NCBI RefSeq assembly: GCF_037996645.1
Contig: NZ_JBBMXV010000003.1
Coordinates: 310,001 to 374,000, forward strand
Direction: 5' to 3'
Length of the DNA: 64,000 nt
From: Halalkalicoccus tibetensis
GTDB taxonomy: Archaea > Halobacteriota > Halobacteria > Halobacteriales > Halalkalicoccaceae
The notes below the pieces were generated by a model, which was not told the origin of the DNA, did not search any database, and saw only the letters and a program-made list of their open reading frames with translations. Both the position numbers and the translations under genes were made by a program. Positions 4,117 through 41,061 of the stretch are shown piece by piece (position 1 is the stretch's first letter; the number at the start of each line of letters is the position of its first letter).

Positions 4117-4206
4117 CCCCACCTCGCTAGTTTGTTACAGTAAAATGGATAAGAAAGTATATATGTTATACGAGGTAACTGACGCTACCGTAACGCTTCA
4201 CTACTC

Positions 4207-7395: not shown

Positions 7396-9033
7396 CTACT
7401 CGAGATATCCCAGATCCGACAGCCGCTCTTCTACCTGTTCGTCCCCGTCCCCGTCGTCGCGTCCGGACGCCGGCGAGTCGTCGTAAGGGGGGTACGAAGC
7501 CGCGCCCCCGTCCCCGACGACCGGTAGGACGTGCCCGTCCATCCGGTCGCTGTACGGGATCCCGATCGCCGAGCAGATCGTCGGCGCGACGTCGAACAGA
7601 TGTGCGTCCATGAGGTCCGCTTCGGCGTCGATCCCCTCGCCCGCGGCGACGAACAGTCCGTCGAGCTTGTGGTTCCACGGTTCGGTCGGCGGGCCGAACA
7701 GCCCGTCGCGGAGCTGTGCCGAGAGGAACTGCTCGAAGTCGTTCGGCACCGTGAGGACGTCGACCGCCTTCTCGGTGTACGGTCCCCAGAAGTACTCCTC
7801 ACGGGGGGCGACCTCGCCGAAGACGGGCTCCCCGTCGGGCGTCTCGACCCCCGCGAGCAGCTCGATCAGCTCGTCGCGGACCTCCTCGTACTCCTCCCGC
7901 GGAACGACGCCCTCCGGCTCGCGGCCCTCGAGATTGATCCGCACCCCGAGTTCGGTTCGCGCGCGCATGTACGCCCGCGACCCGGGGAAGTCGACCTGTT
8001 CGGCGCCCGTCCGGCTCACGCCCGACGGGGCGTGCCGGCGTGCGAGCTCCCCGAGGCCGACCCGATCGAGAACGCCTACCGCCCGCGAGGGGGTCAGCCC
8101 GGCCTTCGCGGCCGTCGCAGCGAGCCGCTCGACCGTGCTCGGCTCCCACGTGGTTCGGTCGTCGCCCTCCCGGAGCTGATCGCGGATCGGGTTCCAGGAG
8201 GGCATCCCCTTTCCCCCGGTCGTCGCCTCGACGTACCCCTCGCGACGGAGGTACTCGTTGAGGCGGAACTCGTAGTTCTCGTAGGGCCCCATCCCGTGGT
8301 CGCTCGCGACGAACACCCGCTTCGGGTCACACGCCTCGAGGATCTCCCCGATCTGTTCGTCCGTGGCCTCGTAGATCCGCTGTACGTGGTCGGGGTTCCC
8401 GTCGAACTCGTGGAAGACCGTGTCGGTCTTCTGGAACTGGACGAACCCGAAGTCGGGCTCGTACTCGTCGGCGAGATATCGGAACGCCTCCCCACGCATC
8501 CGCGCCAGCGTGCAGTACTCGTCGAGCTTCTCCTCGTCGGTGTAGGAGTCGTCGCCCCGCGAGTAGTTCGGATACACCCGGTACTCCCCGATCGCCTCCC
8601 GGACCTCCTCGAGGATCCCCTTCGGGTGGGTTCCGGGGTTCTCCGGACCGATGAAGCCGGGGACCACCGCCCCATCGATTTCGTCGGGCGGGTGGGTGAC
8701 GGGGGCGTTGACGATCACGCTCGAGCGGTCGTGTTCGTCGAGCAGCTCCCAGAGGGTGTGCTCGCGGACGTGGTCGGCGGTCACGACCTCCCAGTCGTAG
8801 CCGTCGAAGTCGACGAACCCATAGACGCCGTGTTTGCCGGGGTTCACGCCCGTATACAGCGAGGGCCAGGCGCTCGGCGTCCACGGCGGGATCTGGGACT
8901 CGAGAGGAGCACTTACCCCGTCCTCGATGATCGACTCAAGGTTCGGAATGCTGTCGGTCTCCGAGAGGCGATCGATCACGGGCTGGCAGGCGGCGTCGAT
9001 CCCGATCAGGAAGGTGTCCATTCGGTTGCTCAT
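7396..9033 (-). CDS. Alkaline-phosphatase-superfamily phosphodiesterase/nucleotide pyrophosphatase-like enzyme
   Basis: 545 residues from ATG 9033; a GTG at 9048 and ATG at 9021 are alternatives, and the TTTAAC box near 9069 fits 9033 better. MDTFLIGIDAACQPVIDRL starts the metal-binding core. PPWTPSAWPSLYTGVNPGKHGVYGF has the threonine/serine nucleophile region of type I phosphodiesterases. KTDTVFHEFDGNPDHV and VFVASDHGMGP supply the aspartate/histidine metal ligands. No signal peptide, so it acts in the cytoplasm. It is the last gene of a minus-strand operon with a membrane protein, a deacetylase and an LpxD-like acyltransferase; a phosphoglycan, phospholipid or nucleotide-sugar substrate is inferred from context. 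Confidence 0.85.
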   Translation of the reverse strand: MSNRMDTFLIGIDAACQPVIDRLSETDSIPNLESIIEDGVSAPLESQIPPWTPSAWPSLYTGVNPGKHGVYGFVDFDGYDWEVVTADHVREHTLWELLDEHDRSSVIVNAPVTHPPDEIDGAVVPGFIGPENPGTHPKGILEEVREAIGEYRVYPNYSRGDDSYTDEEKLDEYCTLARMRGEAFRYLADEYEPDFGFVQFQKTDTVFHEFDGNPDHVQRIYEATDEQIGEILEACDPKRVFVASDHGMGPYENYEFRLNEYLRREGYVEATTGGKGMPSWNPIRDQLREGDDRTTWEPSTVERLAATAAKAGLTPSRAVGVLDRVGLGELARRHAPSGVSRTGAEQVDFPGSRAYMRARTELGVRINLEGREPEGVVPREEYEEVRDELIELLAGVETPDGEPVFGEVAPREEYFWGPYTEKAVDVLTVPNDFEQFLSAQLRDGLFGPPTEPWNHKLDGLFVAAGEGIDAEADLMDAHLFDVAPTICSAIGIPYSDRMDGHVLPVVGDGGAASYPPYDDSPASGRDDGDGDEQVEERLSDLGYLE

Positions 9034-9103
9034 TCGCTCGTGGGTCACCCTTCGTCGGTCGGCCGGTTAAAGACACCCTCTTGGAACCCGCGCTTGAGTC
9101 GCC

Positions 9104-11107
9104 TCAGGTGTCGCCGTCGCCCTCGAGGTCGGCGCCGACGTCCGCGTCGTCGTCGATCTCCCAGGTCGCCGTACACATCGTGACGTCGTCGTTGTCGTAG
9201 GCGTAGTGACGCTCCGCCCCACAGAGCTCGTCACGGCTCATCTCCGGGGTGCCGCTTCGCTCCTCGTCGAGCGCGAAGAAGGCCGATCCGCTGGACTGGT
9301 ACTCCCGATAGATCACCGTCTCGGAGCTCTCCAACCCCTCGTCGGAGACGTCGGCTGCAACCCCGGGTCCGGGACCGGCCCGCGTGAACACAGTGTTGTA
9401 GGGGTGGTCGGTGTGGTAGACCTCGCCCGCCTCCTCGTCGACCGGACGGATCTCGCCGATGGTGTCGACCGCGCTCAGCTCGGCCTGGTTGTAGCTGTAC
9501 TGGGTCTGGGCGTCGCCGAACCGCGGGTTGTCGATCGTTCCGTCGGTCGCGGCGAACGACACCAGCGGGAACGCGAGCGCGAAGACGAGCAACACGACGA
9601 GGATCACCGGCGTCGTCAGGCGCCGCGCGAGATACGCGACGCCGACCGCGGCCAGCAGCGCCAGCGGCGCCGTGAGGAACGCGTACCACCGCTGGGGGAT
9701 GAACGTCCGGACGCCGAACATCGGGAACCCGAAGATGAACACGAGCATCACGACGATCGAGGCCCCGCACATCACCTTCGCGTGTGAGATGTTGCGCCGC
9801 CTGAGGACGTACAGACAGCCGACGACCGCGAGCGCGAACGGGATCAGGAACACCGCCGCGTCGATGTACTGGACCGCCTGTTCGAGCAACGACGGCTCGG
9901 TCGCTGCCTCGACACGATCACCGGTGACGTCGCCGAGCCCGGCCGATTCCTCTAGGGTCACCCGGAAGAAGCTGAAGGTGGTCGCGAGGAATGTATCGCC
10001 GTGATACGGCGTCAGCGACCACATGAACGTGATGAAGCCCAGATCGAACGCCAACAGTCCCGTCAGGCTCACCGAGTCGGAGCTCCCCGCGTTGAGCCCA
10101 CGGAACCGACTGGGGGGTGCGAACAGCTCGAAACGAAGGAGGAGGTGGGCGAGCAGCCCCGCTCCCGTGAGGATGAGCATGATGAACGCCGAGATCTGGT
10201 GGGTGAGGATCGTCGCGATACTGAGGACGACGATCAGGACGAACTCGCGGCTTCCCGGGTTGACGTCGAGGACGCGGACGAGCAGGTAGAACACCCCGAG
10301 GAAGAAGACCAGACCCAGGCCGGTCGGGATGAGGTGGATCGACCACTCGACGGTGTGGGCCGAGATTCCGTAGATCGCGGCGGCGAACAGGCTCCAGCGG
10401 GCGGAGACGAACAGACGGGTCGCGATGTAGACGAACACGGGCGAGAACGCCATCCCGAACCCGACCGAGAGGAACAGTCCGTTGCGGACCGCGACGTCCC
10501 CCAGCAGGCTCGTGGCGACGACCGCCAGGTGGAACAGCGGCGATGCGTAGTACTTGTTGCCCTCGAGGAAGTCGAGCGATCCGGTCTCGAGGATCGTCAC
10601 CGACCACGCGGGGACGTGCGTCCAGACGTCGATCCCGGTGTAGCCGGGCGTGGTAAGCAGCGAGACGTACCGGATGGTGAACGCGAGCACGAGGATCTGC
10701 GCCATGACGAGCCAGGGGACGAAGTCCCGCTCGCGCGTGAAGAATATCTGGAGGAAGATCGCGATCCCCACGAGCGTCGCGAGGTTGTAGAACATCGGCG
10801 TGCGCCCGCCCTGATAGATCCCCATGACGATCAGGAGGGCGGTCCCGAGCAGCACGAGGCTGGGCAGCAGCCGGCCGGCCCAGACGGGAAGGGTCGGCAG
10901 CCCCTCGGTGTTGCTCGTCCGAACCGCGAGCAGGTAGAGCGTGGCGGCGATCACCATCGCGACGGGGATCGCGACGATGTAGAAGTTCGAGGCGAGCAGC
11001 CGTAGGGGCAACAGGACGACGGCGAGGACGATCGCGAGGATCGCACCGATCACGTCGAAGCGCTGGCTCTCGAGCCAGCCGTAGACTCCACCGGCTCTAC
11101 TCGCCAT
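9104..11107 (-). CDS. Large polytopic membrane protein, glycosyltransferase-like
   Basis: 667 residues from ATG 11107 (a GTG three codons earlier is possible). About twelve to thirteen hydrophobic helices, from FDVIGAILAIVLAVVLLPL to VILVVLLVFALAFPLVSFAA, are followed by an acidic C-terminal domain of about 130 residues on one side of the membrane. TPGYTGIDVWTHVPAWSVTI between the early helices recalls the first loop of GT-C glycosyltransferases, where an acidic residue binds the polyprenyl-phosphate sugar, and HLIPTGLGLVFFLGVFY resembles those proteins too. A role in moving sugars outside the membrane is inferred, not shown. It is 43 bases after the deacetylase gene in the same operon. Confidence 0.75.
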   Translation of the reverse strand: MASRAGGVYGWLESQRFDVIGAILAIVLAVVLLPLRLLASNFYIVAIPVAMVIAATLYLLAVRTSNTEGLPTLPVWAGRLLPSLVLLGTALLIVMGIYQGGRTPMFYNLATLVGIAIFLQIFFTRERDFVPWLVMAQILVLAFTIRYVSLLTTPGYTGIDVWTHVPAWSVTILETGSLDFLEGNKYYASPLFHLAVVATSLLGDVAVRNGLFLSVGFGMAFSPVFVYIATRLFVSARWSLFAAAIYGISAHTVEWSIHLIPTGLGLVFFLGVFYLLVRVLDVNPGSREFVLIVVLSIATILTHQISAFIMLILTGAGLLAHLLLRFELFAPPSRFRGLNAGSSDSVSLTGLLAFDLGFITFMWSLTPYHGDTFLATTFSFFRVTLEESAGLGDVTGDRVEAATEPSLLEQAVQYIDAAVFLIPFALAVVGCLYVLRRRNISHAKVMCGASIVVMLVFIFGFPMFGVRTFIPQRWYAFLTAPLALLAAVGVAYLARRLTTPVILVVLLVFALAFPLVSFAATDGTIDNPRFGDAQTQYSYNQAELSAVDTIGEIRPVDEEAGEVYHTDHPYNTVFTRAGPGPGVAADVSDEGLESSETVIYREYQSSGSAFFALDEERSGTPEMSRDELCGAERHYAYDNDDVTMCTATWEIDDDADVGADLEGDGDT

Positions 11108-11150
11108 CCTGTCCACCTTCTCGTCCGTGGCTGTGTGGTTCGCTCATCGA

Positions 11151-11918
11151 TTACTCCAAGCCGTACCGGAACTCGTCGACGTTGTATTTCTTTTCAACAA
11201 GTTGCTCCTGCATAAATCGTTGCGTCCGATCGAGCTCCCGGTCGACCTCCCGGCCGAGCCGCGTCTCGAAGTCGGCGTCCTCCTCGCCCCAGAGCCCGGG
11301 ATGGGTGAGGATCTGGAGCTTCTCCGGCGGGTCGCCTGCCAGGGGGTGTTCCTCCCGCCAGCGCTGGTTCGAGTCACCCCGGTAGGCGATGTCGGTGAAG
11401 AAACGCTCCTCGTAGGTGCTGATGAACCCGTCGAACGACCGCCGGAAGAGCCACTCGTCGGGCCGGTGAAAGGAGACCGCCTCGCTCACCTCCCCGACCG
11501 CGCTCGAGAGCGCGTCCCGCTCGGCGAGCGCGCGCTTGGTCACCGCCTCGGCCGGGGCCTCGCCGTTCCAGTACTGATGGGTGCTGAAGTGGACGCCGAT
11601 CGTGTGGCCCATCGACTGGAGCTCGCGCAGCGCACTCCTGACCGGCTTGTAGAAGACGTTGTACAGCGGACAGCTCAGTAGAACGAAGTACGTCGCCTCG
11701 ATGCCCAGGTCGGCCTCGATCCGCCCCATTTCGAGCGCCTTTCGGGGCGCGAAATCGATGTCGTGGCGGACGATCATCTCCCCGGGTTCGAGGGGGTCGG
11801 CGTAGTCGGCGTCGATGTATCCCGACTCCTGTAGTTCGGCGAGGAACCGTTCGTACCAGTCGTAGGTGAACTCGACGTCTCCCGTGGGCGGCTGATCGGA
11901 GGGGCTGTGTACGGTCAT
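11151..11918 (-). CDS. Polysaccharide-deacetylase-like (NodB fold) protein
   Basis: 255 residues without signal peptide. EMIVRHDIDFAPRKALEMGR carries the metal-binding HDID motif near the start, and MGHTIGVHFSTHQYW has the HXXXH-type second metal site of NodB-fold hydrolases. Such enzymes remove N- or O-acetyl groups from polysaccharides or lipid-linked sugars. The absence of a signal suggests action on a cytoplasmic or membrane-linked precursor. Its ATG overlaps the LpxD-like gene's stop (ATGA), so the two are translationally coupled; an acyltransferase and a deacylase acting on the same sugar is an attractive but unproven reading. Confidence 0.8.
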   Translation of the reverse strand: MTVHSPSDQPPTGDVEFTYDWYERFLAELQESGYIDADYADPLEPGEMIVRHDIDFAPRKALEMGRIEADLGIEATYFVLLSCPLYNVFYKPVRSALRELQSMGHTIGVHFSTHQYWNGEAPAEAVTKRALAERDALSSAVGEVSEAVSFHRPDEWLFRRSFDGFISTYEERFFTDIAYRGDSNQRWREEHPLAGDPPEKLQILTHPGLWGEEDADFETRLGREVDRELDRTQRFMQEQLVEKKYNVDEFRYGLE

Positions 11919-12739
11919 TGGTCTTGGATGGGGCGTGCGGGGGTGCCGACGACCGTCGTGTCGTCCGGGACGTCCGAGAGGACGCCCGCGTTCATGCCGA
12001 CTTCGGCGCCGTCGCCGACCGTCACGTCCGTCGCGACCGACACGTGCGGGTGGATCGTCGCGCGCTCGCCGACGGCCGACCCGCCGGCGAAGCCCGACCC
12101 GTAGGCCACGGTCGTCTCGCGGCCGATACGGGCCTGATGGGCGAGGTGGACCTGGCCGCTCAGTTTCGCACCGCGTTCGACGACCGTCTCGTCGAAGACG
12201 GCCCGGTCGATCGACGTGTTCGGGCCGATCTCTACGTCGTCCTCGATTATCACGCGGCCCTGATGTATCTGCCGGTGCAGCCGACCCGCCGGTTCGCGCG
12301 CGAACCCGAACCCCTCGCTGCCGAGGACGGCCCCCGCACGGACCGTACAGTCGTCGCCGACCTCGACACAGTCCTTGACGTGGACCTGCGGGCCGATGCG
12401 GGTCCGTTCGCCGATCGTCGCCCCCTCCTCGACGACCGCCGTCGGGTGGACCTGCGTCTCCGCGGGGCGCTCGACGAAGAACTCGTTTGCGGCCTTCACG
12501 AAGTCGAGCTTGGGATCGGCCGTCGGAACGAGCGTCCGGTCGTCGGCGGGCTCGAGGCCCGGCGGGCAGAGGACCACGCCGGCGTCGGAGGCCCGAAGAT
12601 AGGCAGGATCGTCGTAGATACAGAACGCGAGGTCGTCCGGGCCGGCGGAATCGAGCGCGTCGACGCCGGTGACCATCGCTTCGGGGCCGACGTGTTCGGC
12701 GCCGACGAACTCGGCGATCTCCGTTGAGGTGAGCGTCAC
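11915..12739 (-). CDS. LpxD-like left-handed beta-helix N-acyltransferase
   Basis: 274 residues from GTG 12739. The N-terminal about 90 residues (MTLTSTEIAEFVGAEHVGPE, DLAFCIYDDPAYLRASDAG) match the UDP-binding domain of LpxD. From about residue 97 hexapeptide repeats form a left-handed beta helix (IGERTRIGPQVHVKDCVEVG). VLGSEGFGFAREPAG and SGQVHLAHQARIG correspond to the LpxD active-site region, including the catalytic histidine. LpxD acylates UDP-glucosamine derivatives in bacterial lipid A synthesis, which archaea lack. The donor here may be acetyl-CoA or a different acyl group; substrate unknown. First gene of the four-gene operon; an AT-rich box (TAATAAAATA) lies about 36 bases upstream. 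Confidence 0.85.
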   Translation of the reverse strand: MTLTSTEIAEFVGAEHVGPEAMVTGVDALDSAGPDDLAFCIYDDPAYLRASDAGVVLCPPGLEPADDRTLVPTADPKLDFVKAANEFFVERPAETQVHPTAVVEEGATIGERTRIGPQVHVKDCVEVGDDCTVRAGAVLGSEGFGFAREPAGRLHRQIHQGRVIIEDDVEIGPNTSIDRAVFDETVVERGAKLSGQVHLAHQARIGRETTVAYGSGFAGGSAVGERATIHPHVSVATDVTVGDGAEVGMNAGVLSDVPDDTTVVGTPARPIQDQ

Positions 12740-12909
12740 GGTGTTCCTACGCGTATTGGTTTCGGGAGGTATTTTATTATCCCGGCTCTAACGGCCGCTG
12801 TCGAAGCGAGTGCCCCGATGGCCGTTACGAGCGGGCCGTGGACCGCGTCTAGCCCCCGTATAAGGAAGTACTGCCACCGGGTCGCCCCCGACAGAGCATC
12901 CGAATATCC

Positions 12910-16238: not shown

Positions 16239-16330
16239 TCCGTATAACTTTCCGATCACGTCCTCTCACGCGTCGAGGAGAACCACCGACGACGTATGAC
16301 TCTGAGCGGATCGACCCGTAATCGGGGCGC

Positions 16331-16462: not shown

Positions 16463-17605
16463 ATGATGAGAGACACCACTGGCGTCCACCCGGGCCGTCG
16501 TTCGTTCCTGCGATCGGTCGGCGCCGGCGCGGCGGCGATCGGCGCGTCCGGCTTCCTGTCGGGAGCGGGTGCCGCCCAGGAAGACGCCGAAGACGACGAA
16601 CCCGCGGGCTACCTCTCGATCGTCTACGACGACAGCCCCGCCGAGGACTACGAGATGTACCAGGTCCACCGGGAGTACGACGCCCCCGGCTGTACCGCGG
16701 CCTGCCCGGGCCTGATGGACTCGAGCGAGAGCTGGCTCACCACCGAGCAGCTCCAGGAGATGCACGAGTTCGGCTGGGAGGTCATGTCCCACACCGTCGA
16801 CCACCGCGCGCTCGGCGAGGTGCCGATCGAGGCCGACATCGCCGAGGGCGACGACCGGATCTACGCCCAGACCAACAACCAGGGCCGGTTCGAGGGCGAC
16901 CCGATCGTCGTTATCGGCGAGGACGGCGAGGCCGAGGGCACGGTCGCGGGCAACGGCGAGGACGACACGGGTCTGTACATCGAGCTCGAGGAGCCGATCG
17001 GCGAGAGCTTCGCCGCCGACGGGGCGGTCGTCCGGTACACCGACGAGTTCACCGAGGAGATCCTCGCGGACTCACGGACCCAGCTCGAGGAGATGGTCGG
17101 CGAGGGACAGGTCACCGGTTTCATCTATCCCTACGAGCGCGACGACGGGTTCGTCGGCGAGGTCATCTCCGACTACTACGACGCCGCGCCGCGGCGCGAC
17201 GGCGCCGGCGGGCTCAACTCCGAGCACGACCCCGACCCCCACGAGCTCTCACGGCGATATATGGAGACCGACCACATGGACGAAGCCGACATCGAGCAGT
17301 TCCTCGACAACGTCGCGAACGAGCCCGACTACGGGATCCTCGCGGGTCACAGCCAGTACGAGACCATGCCGCCCGAGCGACTCGAGTTCGTCCTCGAAGA
17401 GGCCCAACGGCGCGACATCGAGGTCGTCACGATCCAGGAGGCGCTCGACGTCTTCGGCGTCGTCGACGCGCCCGAAGAGGCCGAGGAAGGGGAGGAGGCG
17501 GACGACGATCCCGGGGACGAAAACGGCGGGGACGGGGCGGGCGACGACGACTCCGAGGGACTGATCGCCCGGATCCTCTCGTTCTTCCGGTCGCTGTTCG
17601 ACTGA
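16463..17605 (+). CDS. Tat-exported polysaccharide deacetylase family protein
   Basis: 380 residues. GRRSFLRSVGAGAAAIGASG is a Tat signal, followed by GAGAAQED for cleavage near residue 37. The NodB-like core has YLSIVYDDSPAEDYE (first metal-binding segment, DD) and FGWEVMSHTVDHRALGEV (HXXXH second site). An insertion of about 60 residues (about 135-195) interrupts the domain. FIYPYERDDGFV and ILAGHSQYETMPPERLEFVL complete the fold. The last 50 residues are an acidic linker (EEAEEGEEADDDPGDENGG) and an amphipathic tail ARILSFFRSLFD that may touch the membrane. Likely modifies extracellular polysaccharide next to the beta-helix proteins. Confidence 0.85.
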   Translation: MMRDTTGVHPGRRSFLRSVGAGAAAIGASGFLSGAGAAQEDAEDDEPAGYLSIVYDDSPAEDYEMYQVHREYDAPGCTAACPGLMDSSESWLTTEQLQEMHEFGWEVMSHTVDHRALGEVPIEADIAEGDDRIYAQTNNQGRFEGDPIVVIGEDGEAEGTVAGNGEDDTGLYIELEEPIGESFAADGAVVRYTDEFTEEILADSRTQLEEMVGEGQVTGFIYPYERDDGFVGEVISDYYDAAPRRDGAGGLNSEHDPDPHELSRRYMETDHMDEADIEQFLDNVANEPDYGILAGHSQYETMPPERLEFVLEEAQRRDIEVVTIQEALDVFGVVDAPEEAEEGEEADDDPGDENGGDGAGDDDSEGLIARILSFFRSLFD

Positions 17606-18655: not shown

Positions 18656-18778
18656 ATGAACTCCCCCGCCCTTTCCCCTCCAGCCGCGCCGGAACCGATC
18701 GGTCGTGATACCCACGCCGTGTCCCTCTGCACGGCCTGCGGTTCGACCGAAGCTCCTAGCATCGACTTCGCGCCATGA
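18656..18778 (+). CDS. Possible 40-residue CxxC microprotein upstream of the hybrid kinase
   Basis: Short frame from ATG 18656 ending in TGA 18776-18778, which overlaps the ATG of the REC-histidine kinase (ATGA). The peptide is proline-rich at the start and carries one zinc-knuckle-like pair SLCTACGSTEA. The TATAAATA box at about 18611-18618 would give a transcript starting about 14 bases before this ATG. Single-CxxC microproteins are frequent in haloarchaea, but this frame could also be only a leader ORF. No homologue could be checked. Confidence 0.4.
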   Translation: MNSPALSPPAAPEPIGRDTHAVSLCTACGSTEAPSIDFAP

Positions 18779-24440: not shown

Positions 24441-24501
24441 CAAAGGCGCCACCTTTCGTAAATCGAGGTGAGAACGGGCTCCGACCCGCTTACCGTCTAC
24501 C

Positions 24502-24591
24502 ATGCAACTGACATTACACTACCCTGTCCGGCCCCACGCGACGCTCGGAACCGGTCCCCTCGACGCCACCCTGCCCGGAGGGACCCGATGA
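24502..24591 (+). other. 29-residue upstream ORF overlapping the aminotransferase start
   Basis: ATG 24502 runs without stop to TGA 24589-24591, which overlaps ATG 24588 (ATGA). It fills most of the operon leader. The peptide (begins MQLTLHYPVRPHATLGTGPL) shows no domain. It may couple translation of the operon or be chance; a TGA in this frame follows automatically because the second codon begins with A. Confidence 0.25.
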
Positions 24592-25676
24592 TCCCCATCG
24601 CGAACCCCGACATCGGCGCGGGGGAGCAGGAAGCCGTCGAGGAGGTCCTCGAATCGGGTTATATCGCCAGCGGCGACGTCGTCTCCGAGTTCGAATCCGA
24701 GTTCGCCGACTTCTGTGGCGCCGATCGCGGCGTCGCGACCGCGAACGGGACCGCCGCCCTCCATGCGGCCTGCGAGGCCCTCGACGTCAGGGGGAAGGCG
24801 GTGATCACCACTCCCTTCTCGTTCGTCGCGACCGCGAACTCGATCCGGCTGGCCGGCGGCGAGCCGGTGTTCGCCGACGTCGACCCCGAAACGTACAACC
24901 TCGACCCCGATGCCGTCGAGACCGTCCTCCGCGAGCGCGAGGACGTCGCGGCTGTCATGCCGGTCCACCTCTACGGGCTGCCCGCGGACATGGAGCGGTT
25001 CGTCGAGCTCTCGGAGGAGTACGACGTCGCGCTTATCGAGGACGCCGCACAGGCCCACGGCGCGACAGTCGGCGACCGGCCCGTGGGTTCGATCGGCGAT
25101 GTCGCCTGCTTCTCGTTCTACCCGACGAAGAACATGACGACCGGCGAGGGGGGGATGGTGACGACGAACGACCCCGAGATCGAGGCGGGGGTCCGACAGT
25201 ACATCAACCACGGCCGCGACGGGAGTGCCCAGTACGCCCACCCGGAGATCGGGCACAACCTGCGGCTGACGAACATCGCCGCGGCGCTCGGGCGCGTTCA
25301 GCTCGATCGCCTCCCCGCGTTCACTGAGGCCCGCCGGGAGAACGCCCGCCGCCTGACCGAGGGGCTGGCCGACGCGGACGTCGAGACGCCGACGGTCCCC
25401 GACGACCGCACCCACGTCTACCACCAGTACACGATCCGAAGCGACGACCGCGAGGCCCTCAAGGACGGTCTCGAGGAGCAGGGCGTCGGCAGCAAGGTCT
25501 ACTACCCGACCTGTCTCCACGAGCTCGAGGCCTACGAGGGCTACAGTGCGGAGGTCCCCCACGCGAAACGCGCGACCGAGGAGGTGCTCTCGCTGCCGGT
25601 CCATCCGAACCTCTCGTCGGACGATGTCGATCGGATCGTTGAAGCGGTCACGAACCAAGGGGTGAAACATGTCTGA
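24588..25676 (+). CDS. DegT/DnrJ/EryC1-family sugar aminotransferase (WbpE-like)
   Basis: 362 residues from ATG 24588, chosen because CGGAGGG lies just upstream and homologues start with IPIANPDIGAGEQEAVEEVL; upstream in-frame codons are proline/arginine-rich noise. PLP lysine is residue 181 in FSFYPTKNMTTGEGG. ANGTAALHAACEAL binds phosphate and IEDAAQAHGA carries the PLP-binding aspartate. The family aminates 3- or 4-keto sugars of nucleotide sugars using glutamate. Followed with 8-base overlap by a Gfo/Idh/MocA dehydrogenase; in the WbpA/B/E/D pathway this pair makes the 3-amino group of UDP-2,3-diamino-2,3-dideoxyglucuronate. Specificity inferred from neighbours. Confidence 0.9.
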   Translation: MIPIANPDIGAGEQEAVEEVLESGYIASGDVVSEFESEFADFCGADRGVATANGTAALHAACEALDVRGKAVITTPFSFVATANSIRLAGGEPVFADVDPETYNLDPDAVETVLREREDVAAVMPVHLYGLPADMERFVELSEEYDVALIEDAAQAHGATVGDRPVGSIGDVACFSFYPTKNMTTGEGGMVTTNDPEIEAGVRQYINHGRDGSAQYAHPEIGHNLRLTNIAAALGRVQLDRLPAFTEARRENARRLTEGLADADVETPTVPDDRTHVYHQYTIRSDDREALKDGLEEQGVGSKVYYPTCLHELEAYEGYSAEVPHAKRATEEVLSLPVHPNLSSDDVDRIVEAVTNQGVKHV

Positions 25677-26646
25677 ACGGCCACCCGTCCGTGTGGGCGT
25701 CATCGGCGTCGGCAGCATGGGCCAGAACCACGTCCGCGTCTTCCGGGAGCTGCCCGAAACGGAGCTCGTCGGGATCTACGACGCGGACCGGGAGCAGGCC
25801 GCGTCGGTCGCGGACGCCTTCGGCGTCGACGTCCTCGATCTCGACGACCTGCTGGACGCGGTCGACGCGGTCTCGATCGCGGTCCCGACCCAGTATCACT
25901 ACGATACCGCCCGGGAGTGTATCGACGCTGGCGTCGGTGTCCTGATCGAAAAGCCGATCGTCGAGGACCTGGACAACGGCCGGCAGCTGATCGAGTTCGC
26001 GGACCAGCGCGACGTCACCCTCCAGGTCGGCCACATCGAGCGGTTCAACCCGGCCGTAATGACGCTGATGGAGCTGCTCGACGACCTCGACATCATCGCG
26101 ATCGAGGCCAAACGCCTCGGACCACCGCTCGACCGGGAGATCGCCGACACGGCAGTGATGGACCTGATGATCCACGACATCGACATCATGCTCTCGATAT
26201 TCGGCGAGGAGGCCGAGGACGTCCATGCCGCGGGCACGCGGGGATCGGACTACGCGACGGCGACGATCCAGACCCCCTCGGGACGGATCGGCCAGCTCAC
26301 CGCGAGCCGCGTCACCCAGCAGAAGGTCCGCGAGCTGACCATCACCGCCGAGAAGTGTCGCGTCATCGTTGACTACATCGACCAGTCGATCGAGATAACC
26401 CGCCAGTCGCTGCCGGAGTACGCCAAACAGGACGGCTTCCGGTACCGCCACGAGAACATCGTCGAACAGGTGCTCGTCGAGCGCCGCGAGCCCCTGAAGA
26501 ACGAGCTCTCGGCGTTCGCCGAGGCGGTCAGAACGGGCTCGGAGCCGGTCGTTACCGGCGAGGACGGGCTCCGCGCGCTCTCGCTGGCCCGCGAGATCGA
26601 CGCGCTCGCGGGACGCGAGCGGAGCGCGCCGACCGACGCCGTCTGA
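25669..26646 (+). CDS. Gfo/Idh/MocA-family sugar dehydrogenase (WbpB-like)
   Basis: 325 residues. The Rossmann start VRVGVIGVGSMGQNHVRVFR has the GxGxxG NAD-binding loop. VLIEKPIVEDLDNGRQLIEF contains the EKP motif whose lysine acts in catalysis in this family, and MDLMIHDIDIMLSIFGEE supplies the D/H pair at the active site. It would oxidise a 3-OH of a UDP-uronic acid sugar, giving the 3-keto substrate of the aminotransferase encoded just upstream. Its ATG overlaps that gene's stop by 8 bases, so the two are coupled. Exact substrate inferred. Confidence 0.88.
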   Translation: MSERPPVRVGVIGVGSMGQNHVRVFRELPETELVGIYDADREQAASVADAFGVDVLDLDDLLDAVDAVSIAVPTQYHYDTARECIDAGVGVLIEKPIVEDLDNGRQLIEFADQRDVTLQVGHIERFNPAVMTLMELLDDLDIIAIEAKRLGPPLDREIADTAVMDLMIHDIDIMLSIFGEEAEDVHAAGTRGSDYATATIQTPSGRIGQLTASRVTQQKVRELTITAEKCRVIVDYIDQSIEITRQSLPEYAKQDGFRYRHENIVEQVLVERREPLKNELSAFAEAVRTGSEPVVTGEDGLRALSLAREIDALAGRERSAPTDAV

Positions 26647-26718: not shown

Positions 26719-26772
26719 ATGACTTACATGCCCACGACAGCGATCCCCCAGCCCACGGAGGTCCCCGGATGA
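26719..26772 (+). other. 17-residue upstream ORF overlapping the acyltransferase start
   Basis: ATG 26719 to TGA 26770-26772, sharing ATGA with ATG 26769. The box CCTATAGC (26693-26700) lies about 23-25 bases before this small ATG, close to leaderless spacing. The acyltransferase ATG has its own site GGAGGT at 26758-26763. Possible reinitiation leader; may be chance. Confidence 0.25.
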
Positions 26773-27362
26773 CCGAGCCGCGCCGAGAACTCGGCGAGGA
26801 CTGTGTCATCGACGATCCCGACTCGGTCGGCTACCTCCACGACGAGTCGGCCGACCCCGCAGTGATCGGCGATCGAGCCCGCATCCGCAAGGGAACGATC
26901 GTCTACGCGGACGTCGAGATCGGCGACGACTTCACGACGGGCCACAACGCCCTCGTGCGCGAGGACACGACGATCGGCGACAGCGTGATCGTCGGCACGG
27001 ACACCGTGATCGACGGGACCACCGAGATCGGCTCGCACGTCAGTCTCCAGACGGGCGTCTACGTTCCGACGGACACGACGATCGGCTCGAACGTCTTCGT
27101 CGGTCCGCGGGCGGTGATGACGAACGATCACTACCCCGTTCGCCAGGACGAACCGCTCGAAGGGCCGACCATCGAGGACGGCGTCTCCGTCGGCGCGAAC
27201 GCGACAATCCTCCCCGGCGTGCGCGTCGGTGCGGGCTCGTTCGTCGCCGCCGGCGCGACCGTCACCGAGGACGTACCCCCACACACCCTCGCGCTCGGCA
27301 CGCCGGCGCGACACCGCGACCTTCCCGATTCGTTGACGGGGGAGAACCTACTCAATGAGTGA
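26769..27362 (+). CDS. Hexapeptide-repeat N-acetyltransferase (WbpD-like)
   Basis: 197 residues. After a short N-terminal part the chain is left-handed beta-helix repeats: [40 protein letters not shown]. The active-site segment [20 protein letters not shown] has the asparagine/histidine expected of sugar N-acetyltransferases. [20 protein letters not shown] and [10 protein letters not shown] are the usual acetyl-CoA-binding end. It would acetylate the amino group placed by the WbpE-like enzyme. The 3' end overlaps the next gene by 8 bases (ATGAGTGA). Confidence 0.9.
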
Positions 27363-28746
27363 TAGCACATCACAGGGCGCTCCGGCGCTCTACGGCTCGG
27401 ACGTATCGACCGACGAACAACGGGACGCGCTGACCGGCGGCGAGGTCCCGATCGCGGTCTACGGCCTCGGCAAGATGGGACTGCCGCTGGCCTCGGTCTA
27501 CGCCGACGTGACGGGCAACGTCACCGGCGTCGACGTCGACCCCGCGGTCGTCGAGTCGATCTCGGCCGGCGAGAACCACATCGTCGGCGAGCCCGGGCTC
27601 TCCGACCTCGTCGAGGAGGTCGTCGACCGGGGCGCGCTCTCGGCGACGACCGAAGGCTCCACGGCCGCCGCCGACGCCCGGGTCCACGTCGTGATCGTCC
27701 CGACGCTGGTCGACGAGGACAGCAAACCGGACCTCTCGGTGGTCGAATCGGTGATGGCGGACGTCGCCGCGGGGCTTTCGGCGGGCGATCAGGTGATCCT
27801 CGAATCGACCGTCCCGCCGCGGACCTGCCGCGACGTCGTCGCGCCGACCCTCGCCGCAGAAAGCGGGCTCGATCGTGAGGAGTTCGGCGTCGCGTTCTGT
27901 CCCGAACGGACTTCGAGCGGGCGCGCGCTCGAGGACATCCGTGGCGCCTACCCGAAGATCGTCGGCGGGATCGACGACGAGAGCACCCGAGTCGCGGAGC
28001 TGCTCTACGGAGAGATCAGCTCGAACGAGATCGTTCCCGTCGCCGACGCCACGACGGCGGAGGCGGTCAAGGTGTTCGAGGGGGTCTATCGCGACGTCAA
28101 CATCGCGCTCGCCAACGAGCTCACGAAACACGCAGAAGAGCTCGAGATCAGCGTGCTCGAGGCGATCGAGGCGGCCAACACCCAACCGTTCTGTGACCTC
28201 CACATCCCGGGCGCGGGCGTCGGAGGCCACTGCATCCCCTACTACCCGCACTTCCTGATCCAGATGTTCAACGCGGACTCGCGGCTGATGGAGCTCTCCC
28301 GGGAGATCAACGACACGATGCCGACCTACACCGCGGAGCTCGCCCTCTCGGGGCTGGCGAAACACGGAAAGGAGTCGGCGGGAAGCGACGTGCTCGTGCT
28401 CGGGTTGACCTACCGCGCGGGCGTCGACGAGCTGCGCGCGACGCCGGCAATGGGCGTGATCGAGCGCCTCGCGGGTGCGGGCGCGGACGTCACGGCGGTC
28501 GACCCGATCACGGACACGACGGAACCGTTCGAGGACGCCGGCGCGAACGTCGTCTCGCTCGACGACGTACGCGAAGGGAGCTACGACGCGGTCGTACTGG
28601 TGACCGCACAGGAGGCGTTCGAGGACCTCGAGATACCTGCCCTGGCGGCCGACGACCCGTTGGTGGTCGTCGACGGCCGGCAGGCCCTGACGGAGCTACA
28701 GAATGAACACGGAATCTACTACAGAGGGATCGGTATCAATGCCTGA
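27355..28746 (+). CDS. Nucleotide-sugar 6-dehydrogenase (WbpA-like)
   Basis: 463 residues. The NAD-binding start [20 protein letters not shown], the second domain [20 protein letters not shown] (catalytic lysine and asparagine), and [15 protein letters not shown] with catalytic Cys293 are typical of the UDP-glucose/GDP-mannose dehydrogenase family. [19 protein letters not shown] starts the UDP-binding domain. These enzymes oxidise C6 to a carboxylate in two NAD-dependent steps; with wbpB/D/E-like genes next to it, UDP-GlcNAc is the most likely substrate. Start overlaps the acyltransferase gene by 8 bases. A second dehydrogenase gene follows at once. Confidence 0.88.
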
Positions 28747-30034
28747 ACCGAACGGAGACACGGTCTGTATCGTTGGCCTCGGCTACGTCGGCCTACCGCT
28801 CGCGAACGCCTTCGACGAGGAGGGCCTCGACGTGATCGGCTTCGACGTCGACGAGGAGAAGGTAGCGGAGCTCGCCGCGGGGCGCGACCCGACCCATGAG
28901 ATCGGCGACGAGGCGGTCTCGAAGGGCGGGATCGAGTTCACGACGGACCCGACCCCGATGGAACGTGCCGACTACGTCATCATCACCGTCCCGACGCCGG
29001 TCGACAGCATGAAGAACCCGAACCTCGAGTTCGTCGAGAGCGCGGGCCGGTCCGTCGGCCAGCAGCTCTCGGCCGGAACGACCGTCGTTCTCGAGTCGAC
29101 GGTCTACCCGGGCGTCACCCGTGACCGTCTCGGGCCGGCCATCGAGGCTGCCTCGGGGCTGACCCAGGGCGAGGAGTTCCACCTGGGCTACTCGCCCGAA
29201 CGCCTCGCACCGGGGACGGACAAGAGCCTGCGCGAGGTCAAGAAGATCGTCAGCGGCGACACCGAGGAGACGCTTGCGGACCTCGCGGCGCTCTACGGCA
29301 CCGTCATCGACGCCGGGCTCTATCACGCCGAGACCATCGAGGCCGCGGAGGCGGCGAAAGTGATCGAGAACGTCCAGCGCGACGTGAACATCGCCGTGGT
29401 CAACGAACTCGCGCTGATCTGTGACCACATGGGCCTCGACACCCAGGAAGTGATCGACGCGGCGTCCTCGAAGTGGAACTTCCATCCCTACGAGCCCGGC
29501 CTCGTCGGCGGCCACTGTATCCCCGTCGACCCGCTGTTCCTGGTGCATGGCTCCGAGCGTGCGGGATACTCGCCGAAGCTCATCCTCCAGGCCCGCGAGG
29601 TCAACGAGTACATGCCCAAACACACCGCCGAACTCACCCTGAAGGCGCTCAACCAGTCGGGCAAGGTCCTCCAGGACAGCCGGCTGGTCGTGCTCGGGCT
29701 CGCGTACAAGCCGAACGTCGGCGACCTCCGGACCTCCGAGATCGGCGGCGTCATCACGACGCTCGCCGAGTACGGCATCGAGTGCGACGGCTATGACCCG
29801 CTGGCGCCCGACGAGAAGATCCGCGAGTCGTTCGGGATCAACCCGCTCTCGGGGATGGAGTTCGACGGTGCCGACGGGATCGTGCTGGCGACGCCACACG
29901 ACGCGGTCCTCGAGGAGTTCGACCTCGAGGCCGCGGCCGAGCAGCTCGCCGATGACCCCGTGCTGGTCGACGTGAAGGGCGTGCTGGACGAGGCGGAGGC
30001 CCAGGAGGCCGGCTATGCCTACCGCAAGCTCTGA
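28739..30034 (+). CDS. Second nucleotide-sugar 6-dehydrogenase
   Basis: 431 residues from ATG 28739, which overlaps the previous stop by 8 bases (ATGCCTGA); an ATG at 28703 is less likely as it reaches 44 bases into the upstream gene. NAD loop DTVCIVGLGYVGLPLANAF, catalytic lysine region AAKVIENVQRDVNIAVVNEL, and LVGGHCIPVDPLFL with Cys260. LGLAYKPNVGDLRTSEIGGV opens the UDP-binding domain. It is clearly homologous to but different from its neighbour, so the two probably oxidise different sugars, such as UDP-GlcNAc and UDP-ManNAc or UDP-Glc. Confidence 0.88.
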   Translation: MPEPNGDTVCIVGLGYVGLPLANAFDEEGLDVIGFDVDEEKVAELAAGRDPTHEIGDEAVSKGGIEFTTDPTPMERADYVIITVPTPVDSMKNPNLEFVESAGRSVGQQLSAGTTVVLESTVYPGVTRDRLGPAIEAASGLTQGEEFHLGYSPERLAPGTDKSLREVKKIVSGDTEETLADLAALYGTVIDAGLYHAETIEAAEAAKVIENVQRDVNIAVVNELALICDHMGLDTQEVIDAASSKWNFHPYEPGLVGGHCIPVDPLFLVHGSERAGYSPKLILQAREVNEYMPKHTAELTLKALNQSGKVLQDSRLVVLGLAYKPNVGDLRTSEIGGVITTLAEYGIECDGYDPLAPDEKIRESFGINPLSGMEFDGADGIVLATPHDAVLEEFDLEAAAEQLADDPVLVDVKGVLDEAEAQEAGYAYRKL

Positions 30035-33758: not shown

Positions 33759-35570
33759 ATGTGTGGCATCATCGCTTGTGTCGGTTCCTCCAACGCGGTC
33801 GACACCGTTCTGACCGGACTCAAGAACCTCGAATATCGGGGCTACGACTCCGCCGGGCTCGCGATCCAGAACGGCTCGAACCTCGTAGTTCGAAAGCGCG
33901 CGGGCAAGATCAGCGATCTCACCGACGGGTTCGCCCAGGAGCTCCCGCAGGGCGTCTTGGGGATCGGCCATACCCGCTGGAGCACCCACGGCCCGCCGAC
34001 CGACGAGAACGCCCACCCCCACACGAGCGCCTCGGGCACCGTCGCGGTCGTTCACAACGGCGTCATCTCCAACTACGAGGCGCTTCGAACCGAGCTCGAG
34101 GGGCTCGGCTACGCGTTCGAGAGCGACACCGACACCGAGGTCGTTCCGCACCTCATCGAACACTACCTCGAGGACGGTCTCGACAGCGATGCCGCGTTCC
34201 GCGAGGCGATCGACCGTCTCGAGGGGAGCTACGCCATCGCGGCGATGGTCGAGGGCGAGGAGACGGTGCGCGCGGCTCGACAGGGCTCGCCGCTCGTCGT
34301 CGGCATCCACGACGACGCGTACTATCTGGCGAGCGACGTCCCCGCCTTCCTCGAGTACACCGACGAGGTGATCTACCTCGAGGACGGCGACGTCGTCACC
34401 GTCGAGGACGGATCGCTCTCGATCACGGACCTGGCCGGCGAGCCGATCTCGCGCGAGACCGACGTCGTCGACTGGGACCCCGAGGAGACCGGCAAGGGTG
34501 GCTACGACCACTACATGCTCAAGGAGATCGAGAGCCAGCCCGAGTCGCTCTCGAACACGATCCGCGGACGGATCGACCCCGACGAGCCGGCCGTCCATCT
34601 CGAGGACTTCCCGCGGGGCTGCTTCGAGGACGTCACCGAGGTCCACTTCGTGGCCTGTGGCACGTCGTATCACGCGGCGCTGTACGGCGCGCGGCTGCTC
34701 GAGGAAGCGAACGTCTCGGTTCGTGCTTCGCGTGCCAGCGAGTTCTCCGGGCGGATCCCGAACCCCGACGGAACGCTCGTCGTCCCGGTCACCCAGAGCG
34801 GCGAGACCGCCGACACCCTGGGTGCGCTCAGGGCGGCGCGGGAAGCGGGCGCCCGGACGCTCGCGGTGACGAACGTCATCGGCTCGACGATCGCCCGCGA
34901 GGCCGACGAGGTGTTGTACATCCGCGCCGGCCCGGAGATCGGCGTCGCCGCCACCAAGACCTTCTCCTCGCAGGTGGTCACGCTCGTCCTGCTGGCCGAG
35001 CGGCTCCGCGAGGAGGTCGAGGGCGCCATCGCCCGCGAGGACCGCCGTGAGTTCCTCGAGGCGCTGTCGGTGCTTCCCGACCAGATCGAGGAGGTGATCC
35101 GGACCTCCCGGGCCGAGGCCCTCAGCGAGAAGTACGACGACCGCGGGGCGTACTTCTTCATCGGCCACGCCCTCCAACACCCCGTGGCGCTCGAGGGTGC
35201 GCTGAAGTTCAAGGAGATCACCTACGAGCACGCGGAGGGGTTCGCCTCCGGCGAGCTCAAACACGGCCCGCTCGCACTCGTCACGCCGGGGACCCCGATC
35301 TTCGCACTGTTCGACGGGAAGCACGACGAGAAGACCCACACGAACGCAAAGGAGGCCCAGGCCCGTGGCGCGGAGATCGTCGCGGTCACGTCCAGCGAAC
35401 GGACCGCGTCGTTCGCCGACGACGTCCTGGCGATCCCCGACACCCACCCGGATCTCGTCGGGCTGCTCGCGAACGTCCAGCTCCAGTTCGTCTCCTACTA
35501 CACCGCACGGTTGCTCGGCCGGCCGATCGACAAGCCACGCAACCTCGCGAAGAGTGTCACCGTCGAGTGA
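33759..35570 (+). CDS. glmS: Glutamine--fructose-6-phosphate aminotransferase (isomerizing)
   Basis: 603 residues, the family's normal length. MCGIIACVGSSNAVDTVLTG has Cys2, the glutaminase nucleophile after Met removal; EYRGYDSAGLA and IGHTRWSTHGPPTDENAHPH are glutaminase-domain motifs (1 to about 220). Two SIS isomerase domains follow (about 285-420 and 450-590), with FVACGTSYHAALYG, VTQSGETADTLGAL and the end KPRNLAKSVTVE that reaches the active site. It converts fructose 6-phosphate plus glutamine into glucosamine 6-phosphate, the first step to UDP-GlcNAc. GlmM- and GlmU-like genes lie 4-6 kb downstream on the other strand. Confidence 0.96.
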   Translation: MCGIIACVGSSNAVDTVLTGLKNLEYRGYDSAGLAIQNGSNLVVRKRAGKISDLTDGFAQELPQGVLGIGHTRWSTHGPPTDENAHPHTSASGTVAVVHNGVISNYEALRTELEGLGYAFESDTDTEVVPHLIEHYLEDGLDSDAAFREAIDRLEGSYAIAAMVEGEETVRAARQGSPLVVGIHDDAYYLASDVPAFLEYTDEVIYLEDGDVVTVEDGSLSITDLAGEPISRETDVVDWDPEETGKGGYDHYMLKEIESQPESLSNTIRGRIDPDEPAVHLEDFPRGCFEDVTEVHFVACGTSYHAALYGARLLEEANVSVRASRASEFSGRIPNPDGTLVVPVTQSGETADTLGALRAAREAGARTLAVTNVIGSTIAREADEVLYIRAGPEIGVAATKTFSSQVVTLVLLAERLREEVEGAIAREDRREFLEALSVLPDQIEEVIRTSRAEALSEKYDDRGAYFFIGHALQHPVALEGALKFKEITYEHAEGFASGELKHGPLALVTPGTPIFALFDGKHDEKTHTNAKEAQARGAEIVAVTSSERTASFADDVLAIPDTHPDLVGLLANVQLQFVSYYTARLLGRPIDKPRNLAKSVTVE

Positions 35571-40982: not shown

Positions 40983-41061
40983 TGTCGAATCGTTTCCTGC
41001 TTGCGGGCTTTGTTATCTGCCGGTTAATGCATGGCGATCCCCTTCCACCCACGAGCAGCGT

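What the first reader, a model, noticed from the sequence alone, without database searches (positions are those of the whole stretch)
7396..12739. Four-gene membrane/glycan operon with an LpxD-like acyltransferase
LpxD acylates UDP-glucosamine in lipid A synthesis, which archaea do not have. Here an LpxD relative with intact active-site histidine is coupled (ATGA) to a NodB-like deacetylase and followed by a large membrane protein and a phosphodiesterase, with a Dpm1-like transferase divergent. This might be an undescribed archaeal sugar-acylation system.
Basis: partly seen in the sequence, partly recalled or inferred. Interest (0 to 1): 0.55.

Follow-up and report, generated by a model that had tools for sequence, protein, structure and literature searches.

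The report
Archaeal LpxD-like amino-sugar acyltransferase operon
A salt-loving archaeon carries a relative of the bacterial lipid A enzyme LpxD inside a surface-sugar gene cluster, where it probably attaches a small acyl group to an amino sugar, so a hallmark bacterial endotoxin enzyme appears to serve a different job in archaea.

Summary
The genes are real and at the stated coordinates, in a genome of (by inference) Halalkalicoccus. The LpxD-like protein belongs to the LpxD family (Pfam domain, hexapeptide helix, catalytic His) but is not the lipid A enzyme: it misses the lipid_A_lpxD cut-off, lacks the C-terminal ACP-binding helix, has Pro at an acyl-pocket Gly position, and its 24 host genomes show no ACP domain and no LpxA or LpxC over cut-off. 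It occurs in 24 of 391 sampled genomes of the class (13 of 86 genera). The exact four-gene order holds in 6 of 24, all one genus. Looser partners recur: NodB-like deacetylase within 10 kb in 20 of 24 loci, Dpm1-like GT2 in 18; NodB or a DegT aminotransferase in 23. Of four NodB-less loci, three lie in pseudaminic-type (two) or dTDP-aminosugar (one) clusters, apparently in the N-acetyltransferase slot. Best reading: an ACP-independent, probably acyl-CoA-using N-acyltransferase of nucleotide-linked amino sugars in a diamino-sugar surface-glycan island; deacetylase, GT2 and membrane protein may work like ArnD, ArnC, ArnT. No chemistry was tested.

The parts
11915..12739 (-). LpxD-like N-acyltransferase (274 aa, GTG start)
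   Evidence: PF04613 37.8 bits vs 30.8, Hexapep; PRK00892.1 230.7 vs 207, TIGR01853 208.8 vs 242.5 not reached
12137..12139 (-). codon of H201, aligned with catalytic H239 of E. coli LpxD
   Evidence: His in 24 of 24 haloarchaeal and 76 of 76 bacterial sequences
12047..12049 (-). codon of P231, at the position of E. coli G269 (acyl pocket)
   Evidence: Pro in 24 of 24 haloarchaeal, Gly/Ala in 76 of 76 bacterial sequences
11151..11918 (-). NodB/CE4-like deacetylase, no hydrophobic segment found, ATGA overlap with the LpxD-like gene
9104..11116 (-). polytopic membrane protein, about 12 hydrophobic segments plus a C-terminal domain of about 145 aa; GT-C-type transferase is a guess
   Evidence: no Pfam or PDB match; conserved D163/W165/H167 and Y189/P193/H196; hydropathy
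7396..9048 (-). type I phosphodiesterase/nucleotide pyrophosphatase family protein, no hydrophobic segment found
   Evidence: PF01663 123.7 bits
12910..13872 (+). GT2, polyprenyl-phosphate-sugar synthase type (AglJ/ArnC-like), divergent
   Evidence: PF00535; TIGR04182 AglJ 54.5 bits, below cut-off 325; ArnC 17.3 bits
13965..15056 (-). beta-helix-like protein with a Tat-like start (by eye); no Pfam match itself, homologues recur near LpxD
   Evidence: related L048 protein: Beta_helix; 16 of 24 loci
16463..17605 (+). second polysaccharide deacetylase
   Evidence: PF01522 32.4 bits vs 23.1
24468..25676 (+). DegT/DnrJ sugar aminotransferase (WbpE/ArnB/PseC-like)
   Evidence: PF01041 396 bits; 178 bits to E. 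coli ArnB
25669..26646 (+). Gfo/Idh/MocA oxidoreductase (WbpB/UDP-GlcNAc 3-dehydrogenase-like)
   Evidence: NF040723 249.2 bits, below cut-off 450
26769..27362 (+). hexapeptide sugar acetyltransferase (WbpD/NeuD-like)
   Evidence: Hexapep 91.2 bits; NeuD 91.3 bits, below cut-off 160.8
27355..30034 (+). two nucleotide-sugar dehydrogenases (27355-28746, 28703-30034)
   Evidence: TIGR03026 357.2 and 383.5 bits vs 189.8
33759..35570 (+). GlmS (UDP-GlcNAc supply)
   Evidence: TIGR01135 702.7 vs 418
39801..42396 (-). archaeal GlmU-type and GlmM-type proteins (39801-40982, 41062-42396)
   Evidence: TIGR03992 531.9 vs 292.1; TIGR03990 479.9 vs 439

Best explanation
The LpxD-like protein is a cytosolic, ACP-independent N-acyltransferase that acylates the free amine of a nucleotide-activated amino sugar made by the neighbouring pathway (here probably a UDP-2,3-diamino-sugar route: GlmS/GlmM/GlmU, C6 and C3 dehydrogenases, DegT aminotransferase). 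Donor: most likely acetyl-CoA or another short acyl-CoA. System logic, inferred by analogy with the Arn pathway (recalled): GT2 loads the N-acylated sugar onto polyprenyl phosphate, the coupled NodB-like enzyme removes an N-acyl group on the cytosolic side, and the membrane protein hands the sugar to a surface glycan. SHOWN by sequence: family, catalytic His, lost ACP helix, altered acyl-pocket position, no ACP/LpxA/LpxC detected, recurrent neighbours. INFERRED: substrate, acyl donor, order of steps, and the roles of the membrane protein and the phosphodiesterase.
For: Family and catalytic His. Residues after the Gly-x-Pro motif: 4-17 in 24 haloarchaeal sequences, 19-62 in 76 bacterial ones; the E. 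coli G269 position is Pro in 24 of 24 versus Gly/Ala in 76 of 76. P. aeruginosa Gly272, which I equate with E. coli G269 by the offset of the catalytic His, is named among acyl-pocket residues, and the C-terminal helix bundle contacts ACP (PMC6820557, passages). In the 24 LpxD-bearing genomes: ACP domain 0 of 24, LpxC 0 of 24 and LpxA 0 of 24 over cut-off, with controls ringing. An amine source, NodB or DegT, lies within 10 kb in 23 of 24 loci. Three of the four NodB-less loci: L213 and L051 hold PseG-, NeuB/PseI-, DegT- and PseB-like genes around the LpxD-like gene, and no PseH match passes its cut-off in those two genomes; L059 has RmlA- and RmlC-like proteins, a 4,6-dehydratase-type protein, FdtA and DegT with the LpxD-like gene. 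The NodB-GT2 pairing persists in LpxD-negative loci (10 of 15 fetched).
Against: The window has its own WbpD-like acetyltransferase (26769-27362), so N-acetylation of the diamino sugar does not need this gene; in such loci it must do a second or different acylation. No activity, substrate or donor was tested. Matches below the PseH cut-off exist (best 63.4 bits in G150, cut-off 93.1; and only 1 of 14 control genomes passes it), so the slot argument is not exclusive. Except PseG in L213, the Pse/Neu-type neighbours are below their equivalog cut-offs, so which nonulosonic acid is made is open. E. coli H276 is not conserved (Asp 11, His 10 of 24), nor are E. coli N44 and Y47 of the N-terminal domain, recalled as uracil contacts, though F41 is. 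The membrane protein has no recognised family and its model failed (pLDDT 34.5). ArnD and ArnT show no significant similarity to the NodB and membrane-protein profiles (7.6 and -1.3 bits). L055 has neither NodB nor DegT.
Confidence: 0.6

Rival explanations
1. Lpx-like order: the NodB-like enzyme deacetylates the 2-N-acetyl group of the UDP-sugar (role of LpxC) and the LpxD-like enzyme re-acylates that amine (role of LpxD), giving a sugar with a non-acetyl N-acyl group. (Shares the N-acyltransferase core with the best explanation.)
For: LpxD and NodB reading frames overlap in 9 of 24 loci of four genera (automatic gene starts); neither window protein has a hydrophobic segment; it would explain why loci with their own acetyltransferase keep the gene. 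GnnA/GnnB of diamino lipid A are described as NAD-dependent oxidation and transamination (PMC5644692, passages), parallel to the Gfo/DegT pair here.
Against: NodB stays with GT2 (10 of 15) and with DegT plus acetyltransferase genes (11 of 15) in fetched loci of LpxD-negative genomes, so NodB has a job independent of LpxD; four LpxD loci have no NodB within 10 kb.
Confidence: 0.25
2. An ordinary sugar N-acetyltransferase of LpxD ancestry, interchangeable with WbpD/PseH/FdtC types, with no special acyl group. (A narrower form of the best explanation.)
For: The three transaminase-cluster loci; Pro and bulky residues at acyl-pocket positions; 18 of 22 members also match the NeuD sugar-acetyltransferase model at E <= 1e-20.
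Against: A WbpD-like acetyltransferase homologue coexists in the window (about 14 kb away) and within 10 kb in 7 of 24 loci; the NodB-linked members fall in one clade apart from the transaminase-cluster ones.
Confidence: 0.4
3. A true LpxD making a long-chain N-acylated glycolipid, an archaeal lipid A analogue.
For: PRK00892 subfamily cut-off passed; catalytic His.
Against: No ACP domain, and no LpxA or LpxC over cut-off, in 24 genomes; no ACP helix, acyl-pocket Gly position is Pro.
Confidence: 0.03

Closest known systems
LpxD, UDP-3-O-acylglucosamine N-acyltransferase (TIGR01853, PF04613)
   Same: N-terminal LpxD domain, hexapeptide repeats, catalytic His, invariant Arg (E. coli R217)
   Different: 274 aa against 341 in E. 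coli, no C-terminal ACP helix, acyl-pocket Gly position is Pro, below equivalog cut-off, no LpxA/LpxC/ACP detected
Sugar N-acetyltransferases of aminosugar pathways (WbpD, PseH/LegH, FdtC/QdtC; roles partly recalled)
   Same: position beside a DegT aminotransferase in clusters of the same kind
   Different: by sequence LpxD family; NeuD model 77.4 bits against a cut-off of 160.8
Arn pathway (ArnB-ArnA-ArnC-ArnD-ArnT; roles recalled)
   Same: set of roles: aminotransferase, N-acylation, GT2 onto polyprenyl phosphate, NodB-type deacylase, membrane transferase
   Different: only ArnB (178 bits) and weakly ArnC (17.3 bits) resemble the window proteins; an LpxD-type enzyme in place of the formyltransferase
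GnnA/GnnB plus LpxA/LpxC/LpxD diamino lipid A route
   Same: Gfo-type oxidoreductase, DegT aminotransferase, LpxD family
   Different: no LpxA/LpxC over cut-off; CE4-like rather than LpxC-type deacetylase; glycan, not lipid A, context

Membership tests
LpxD (lipid A N-acyltransferase) | Pfam LpxD N-terminal domain over gathering score | tested here: met
   37.8 bits vs 30.8
LpxD (lipid A N-acyltransferase) | catalytic His (E. coli H239) | tested here: met
   24 of 24
LpxD (lipid A N-acyltransferase) | TIGR01853 equivalog cut-off | tested here: not met
   208.8 vs 242.5
LpxD (lipid A N-acyltransferase) | C-terminal ACP-recognition helix | tested here: not met
   tails 4-17 vs 19-62 residues; alignment with E. 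coli
LpxD (lipid A N-acyltransferase) | ACP and the pathway partners LpxA, LpxC in the genome | tested here: not met
   ACP domain 0 of 24; LpxC and LpxA over cut-off 0 of 24 each
LpxD (lipid A N-acyltransferase) | transfers 3-hydroxyacyl to the 2-amine of UDP-3-acyl-GlcN | not testable with these tools
   needs biochemistry
NeuD/WbpD/GlmU-type acetyltransferase | family cut-offs (TIGR03570, GlmU models) | tested here: not met
   NeuD 77.4 vs 160.8; GlmU models far below
CE4/NodB deacetylase (window 11151-11918) | Pfam PF01522 gathering score | tested here: not met
   21.0 vs 23.1, narrowly
CE4/NodB deacetylase (window 11151-11918) | metal/base motif H-D-x-D and H-x3-H | tested here: met
   H52, D53, D55, H110 in 20 of 20, H114 in 18 of 20; meaning of the motif recalled
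CE4/NodB deacetylase (window 11151-11918) | CE4 relatives by profile or fold | tested here: inconclusive
   profile A3 against PDB: best 5jmu, peptidoglycan GlcNAc deacetylase, E 0.0017; model pLDDT 63, its three Foldseek hits at E <= 0.001 are all CE4-type deacetylases, TM to query 0.36-0.44
GT-C glycosyltransferase (window 9104-11116) | recognised GT-C family or fold | tested here: inconclusive
   no Pfam or PDB match; model failed
Arn pathway | homologues of ArnB, ArnC, ArnD, ArnT | tested here: inconclusive
   ArnB 178 bits, ArnC 17.3; ArnD 7.6 and ArnT -1.3, not significant

The most novel reading that the evidence does not exclude
Archaea hold their own branch of the LpxD family, repurposed as a CoA-dependent enzyme that puts a non-acetyl short acyl group (for example 3-hydroxybutyryl) on amino sugars, run with Arn-like load-deacylate-transfer logic to build an N-acyl-modified or free-amine-bearing surface glycan; LpxD chemistry would then not be tied to lipid A or to ACP.
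Probability: 0.15. Interest if true: 0.7.

Novelty: new variant of a known kind. Interest (0 to 1): 0.5.

Why it matters
LpxD is treated as a lipid A enzyme; one survey states that all bacteria it examined have both LpxA and LpxD or lack both (PMC3087551, passages). An ACP-independent LpxD branch in archaea, without a recognisable LpxA and placed in several different amino-sugar clusters, would show that this fold serves general sugar N-acylation, would give archaeal glycobiology a testable enzyme for N-acyl diversity, and warns that automatic 'lipid A' labels in archaea can mislead.

Tried and rejected
Lipid A analogue: rejected on the ACP/LpxA/LpxC tests and the lost ACP helix. Four genes as a universal block: rejected, strict order in 6 of 24 genomes, one genus. 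Recent transfer from a sampled bacterium: not supported; the 36 bacterial LpxD rows of the tree (35 scanned loci plus E. coli; every second of the bacterial sequences of at least 320 aa was used) form one group (support 82/95) apart from the haloarchaeal rows. But several deep forks are weak, branches are long, L055 is unplaced, the haloarchaeal rows are not one clade in the drawn tree (2 label changes), and the root is by midpoint. None of the 76 bacterial loci, many of them short, holds a NodB, GT2, membrane-protein or phosphodiesterase homologue at 1e-4. Structure of the membrane protein: model useless; PDB profile search empty. Membrane protein versus the L046-type one (MemC2): hhalign probability only 45.9, E 2e-4, so grouping them is tentative. 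A CoA-transferase III gene next to the LpxD-like gene in L057 was considered as a donor clue; it occurs in 1 of 24 loci and was not pursued. First gene calling failed on low-GC loci L051, L057 and L059 and was replaced, then by tblastn. A paper on archaeal membrane proteins (PMC5898192, passages) gave nothing on these genes.
Full report
WHAT IS THERE. The window lies in contig 3 of a 3.6-Mb genome. Its genus is Halalkalicoccus by inference: same-genus genome G216 has its LpxD-like gene on a contig of 28,980 bases, as has Halalkalicoccus paucihalophilus DSM 24557. The LpxD-like stop and the deacetylase start overlap as ATGA. A TATA-like stretch at 12770-12779, read by eye, would give a nearly leaderless transcript from the GTG at 12739; this is inference.

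THE LPXD-LIKE PROTEIN. Pfam LpxD passes its cut-off (37.8 vs 30.8) with hexapeptide repeats. NCBIfam's broad PRK00892 model passes (230.7 vs 207), the lipid A equivalog does not (208.8 vs 242.5). All 22 members of alignment A1 match both models at E <= 1e-20, and 18 also match the NeuD sugar-acetyltransferase model. The closest solved structures are bacterial LpxDs. H201 aligns with E. coli H239. One search aligned 24 haloarchaeal sequences (22 of A1 plus L066 and L213), E. coli and 76 bacterial ones. His is universal, as is the Arg at E. coli R217. E. coli G269 is Gly/Ala in 76 of 76 bacteria but Pro in 24 of 24 haloarchaea; E. coli G268 is Gly/Ala in 76 of 76 bacteria and His/Gln/Asn/Ser (17/4/2/1) in haloarchaea. 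E. coli H276 is His in 66 of 76 bacteria and 10 of 24 haloarchaea. In the N-terminal domain F41 is kept (23 Phe, 1 Tyr of 24), N44 and Y47 are not. Tails after the Gly-x-Pro motif do not overlap (4-17 vs 19-62). A paper on P. aeruginosa LpxD names Gly272, which I equate with E. coli G269 by the offset of the catalytic His, among acyl-pocket residues, and the C-terminal helix bundle as the ACP contact (PMC6820557, passages). The protein thus seems not built to use ACP, and its acyl pocket is altered, probably towards a short acyl group; both functional steps are inference.

NO LIPID A PATHWAY DETECTED. In the 24 LpxD-bearing genomes: ACP domain 0 of 24 at E <= 0.001 (11 of 14 control genomes ring); LpxC over cut-off 0 of 24, one weak sub-threshold hit (4 of 14 controls pass); LpxA over cut-off 0 of 24, while sub-threshold hexapeptide hits occur in all 24 (4 of 14 controls pass).

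DISTRIBUTION. Pfam LpxD finds 22 of 391 genomes of the class at E <= 0.001, 18 of them over cut-off; the A1 profile finds 24 of 391 in 13 of 86 genera at E <= 1e-20, one a contig-edge fragment. In a phylum sample 8 of 294 match at E <= 1e-15, 5 of them outside the order and weakly. The A3 deacetylase profile finds 76 of 391 genomes at E <= 1e-20. Deacetylase and LpxD co-occur in 21 of 24 LpxD genomes against 55 of 367 others (Fisher p 1e-13, uncorrected for kinship); by genus 11 of 13 against 40 of 86 overall (hypergeometric p 0.003). In one of the 21 (G301) the two genes are on different contigs. Seven of 7 genomes of the genus hold the membrane protein; the LpxD-like gene was searched in 6 of these and found in all 6.

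NEIGHBOURHOOD. Within 10 kb of the LpxD-like gene in the 24 genomes: NodB-like 20, GT2 18, beta-helix protein 16, membrane protein of either type 15, phosphodiesterase of any type 12, DegT 11, DUF354 11, GT4 11, Gfo 8, WbpD-like acetyltransferase 7. Some loci are cut by contig ends, so counts are lower bounds. NodB or DegT is present in 23 of 24. The exception is L055, the most divergent sequence (33% identity), next to another hexapeptide gene. By chance a given gene lies within 10 kb in about 0.6% of placements in a 3.6-Mb genome. Exact order LpxD-NodB-membrane protein-phosphodiesterase: 6 of 24, all of the window's genus. Four genomes of genus g12 carry NodB-MemC2-phosphodiesterase-LpxD in one direction (one, L046, with an opposite-strand gene between the last two). 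But MemC2's homology to the window's membrane protein is weak and their phosphodiesterase is only about 28% identical. LpxD and NodB reading frames overlap in 9 of 24 loci from four genera (automatic gene starts).

WHAT THE NODB CASSETTE DOES WITHOUT LPXD. I fetched NodB loci of 15 of the 55 NodB-bearing genomes without LpxD. Eleven have DegT and the WbpD-like acetyltransferase on the fetched stretch, 10 have GT2, and 8 show acetyltransferase-DegT-YdjM-NodB-GT2 in one direction; 4 show neither DegT, acetyltransferase nor GT2. In L052, L054 and L056 the LpxD-like gene sits between YdjM and NodB. It looks like an added module on a recurrent amino-sugar cassette.

WHAT LPXD DOES WITHOUT NODB. In L213 and L051 the gene lies between a PseG-like gene (160.7 bits, over the 153.55 cut-off, in L213; 146.4, below it, in L051) and a NeuB/PseI-like gene (below cut-offs), followed by a DegT gene (PseC model 382 bits in L213, below 423.5) and PseB-like or Polysacc_synt_2 genes. 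No PseH match reaches its cut-off in either genome. In L059 it lies near RmlA- and RmlC-like proteins, a 4,6-dehydratase-type protein, FdtA (180 bits) and DegT. In such pathways an N-acetyltransferase follows the aminotransferase; the haloarchaeal legionaminic route is drawn that way (LegC then LegH, PMC6137143, passages); the PseH and FdtC/QdtC slots are recalled. The LpxD-like gene thus appears to fill the N-acyltransferase slot. In the tree these three sequences fall outside the 20-member clade (support 95/75) that holds every NodB-linked row of the tree. Nineteen of those 20 have NodB within 10 kb; the locus of the twentieth (L066) ends where NodB would be expected.

THE WIDER WINDOW. From about 7 to 42 kb the window holds GlmS, GlmM- and GlmU-type proteins, two nucleotide-sugar dehydrogenases, a UDP-GlcNAc-3-dehydrogenase-like oxidoreductase, DegT, a WbpD-like acetyltransferase, GT4s, DUF354, a flippase-like protein and a second deacetylase. 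With recalled WbpA/B/E/D chemistry this predicts a UDP-2,3-diamino-uronic acid.

MECHANISM. Shared core of the favoured readings: the LpxD-like enzyme acylates an amine on an activated sugar. Its acetyltransferase neighbour suggests a second amine or a different acyl group. For the rest, the Arn-like model explains why NodB stays with GT2 even without LpxD; the Lpx-like model explains the coupling of NodB to LpxD. The NodB-like protein keeps H-D-x-D and mostly H-x3-H, its profile weakly finds CE4 enzymes in the PDB and its low-confidence model resembles them; no hydrophobic segment was found, so it probably acts in the cytosol. The membrane protein's role as a transferase rests on topology and conserved polar residues only.

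LITERATURE. Searches of the held library for LpxD with haloarchaea (1 unrelated paper), archaea plus polysaccharide deacetylase (0), archaeal hexapeptide acyltransferase (0), Halobacteria plus sialic acid (0), and euryarchaeota plus lipid A biosynthesis (2 unrelated papers) listed nothing on an archaeal LpxD (listings only). Subscription journals are mostly not covered.

VERDICT. Observation confirmed, interpretation partly supported: a new variant of a known enzyme family in a real but only loosely conserved gene set.

Noticed in passing
window 17700-18575 and 18775-19848, +: A protein fusing an HxlR-type DNA-binding domain, a receiver domain and HalX, followed by a receiver-histidine kinase hybrid; the fusion looks unusual, and relatives of the first lie in the same place in L040, L042 and L043.
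   Followed up: no
window 13965-15056 and 15201-16259, -: Two proteins without Pfam match, the first with a Tat-like start; homologues of the first or of a Beta_helix protein lie within 10 kb of the LpxD-like gene in 16 of 24 loci, perhaps polysaccharide-processing.
   Followed up: partly
own genome G000:C3:291802-293676 (L031, L062): A paralogue of the membrane protein (about 40% identity) roughly 24 kb before the operon, with counterparts in sister genomes.
   Followed up: partly
L057:9386-11526: A CoA-transferase family III gene 23 bases from the LpxD-like gene on the same strand; a possible acyl-CoA supplier, but seen in only one of 24 loci.
   Followed up: no
L055:18137-19084: Most divergent LpxD-like protein (33% identity), with an adjacent small hexapeptide gene and neither NodB nor DegT nearby; may be a different subfamily.
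   Followed up: partly
window 4201-6720, -: An 839-aa open frame antisense to the 858-aa sensor-type gene at 4207-6783; such long antisense frames recur in this GC-rich DNA and are probably not genes.
   Followed up: no
window 23295-24284, -: DUF1616 protein (253.6 bits); homologues lie within 10 kb of the LpxD-like gene in 7 of 24 loci; function unknown.
   Followed up: no
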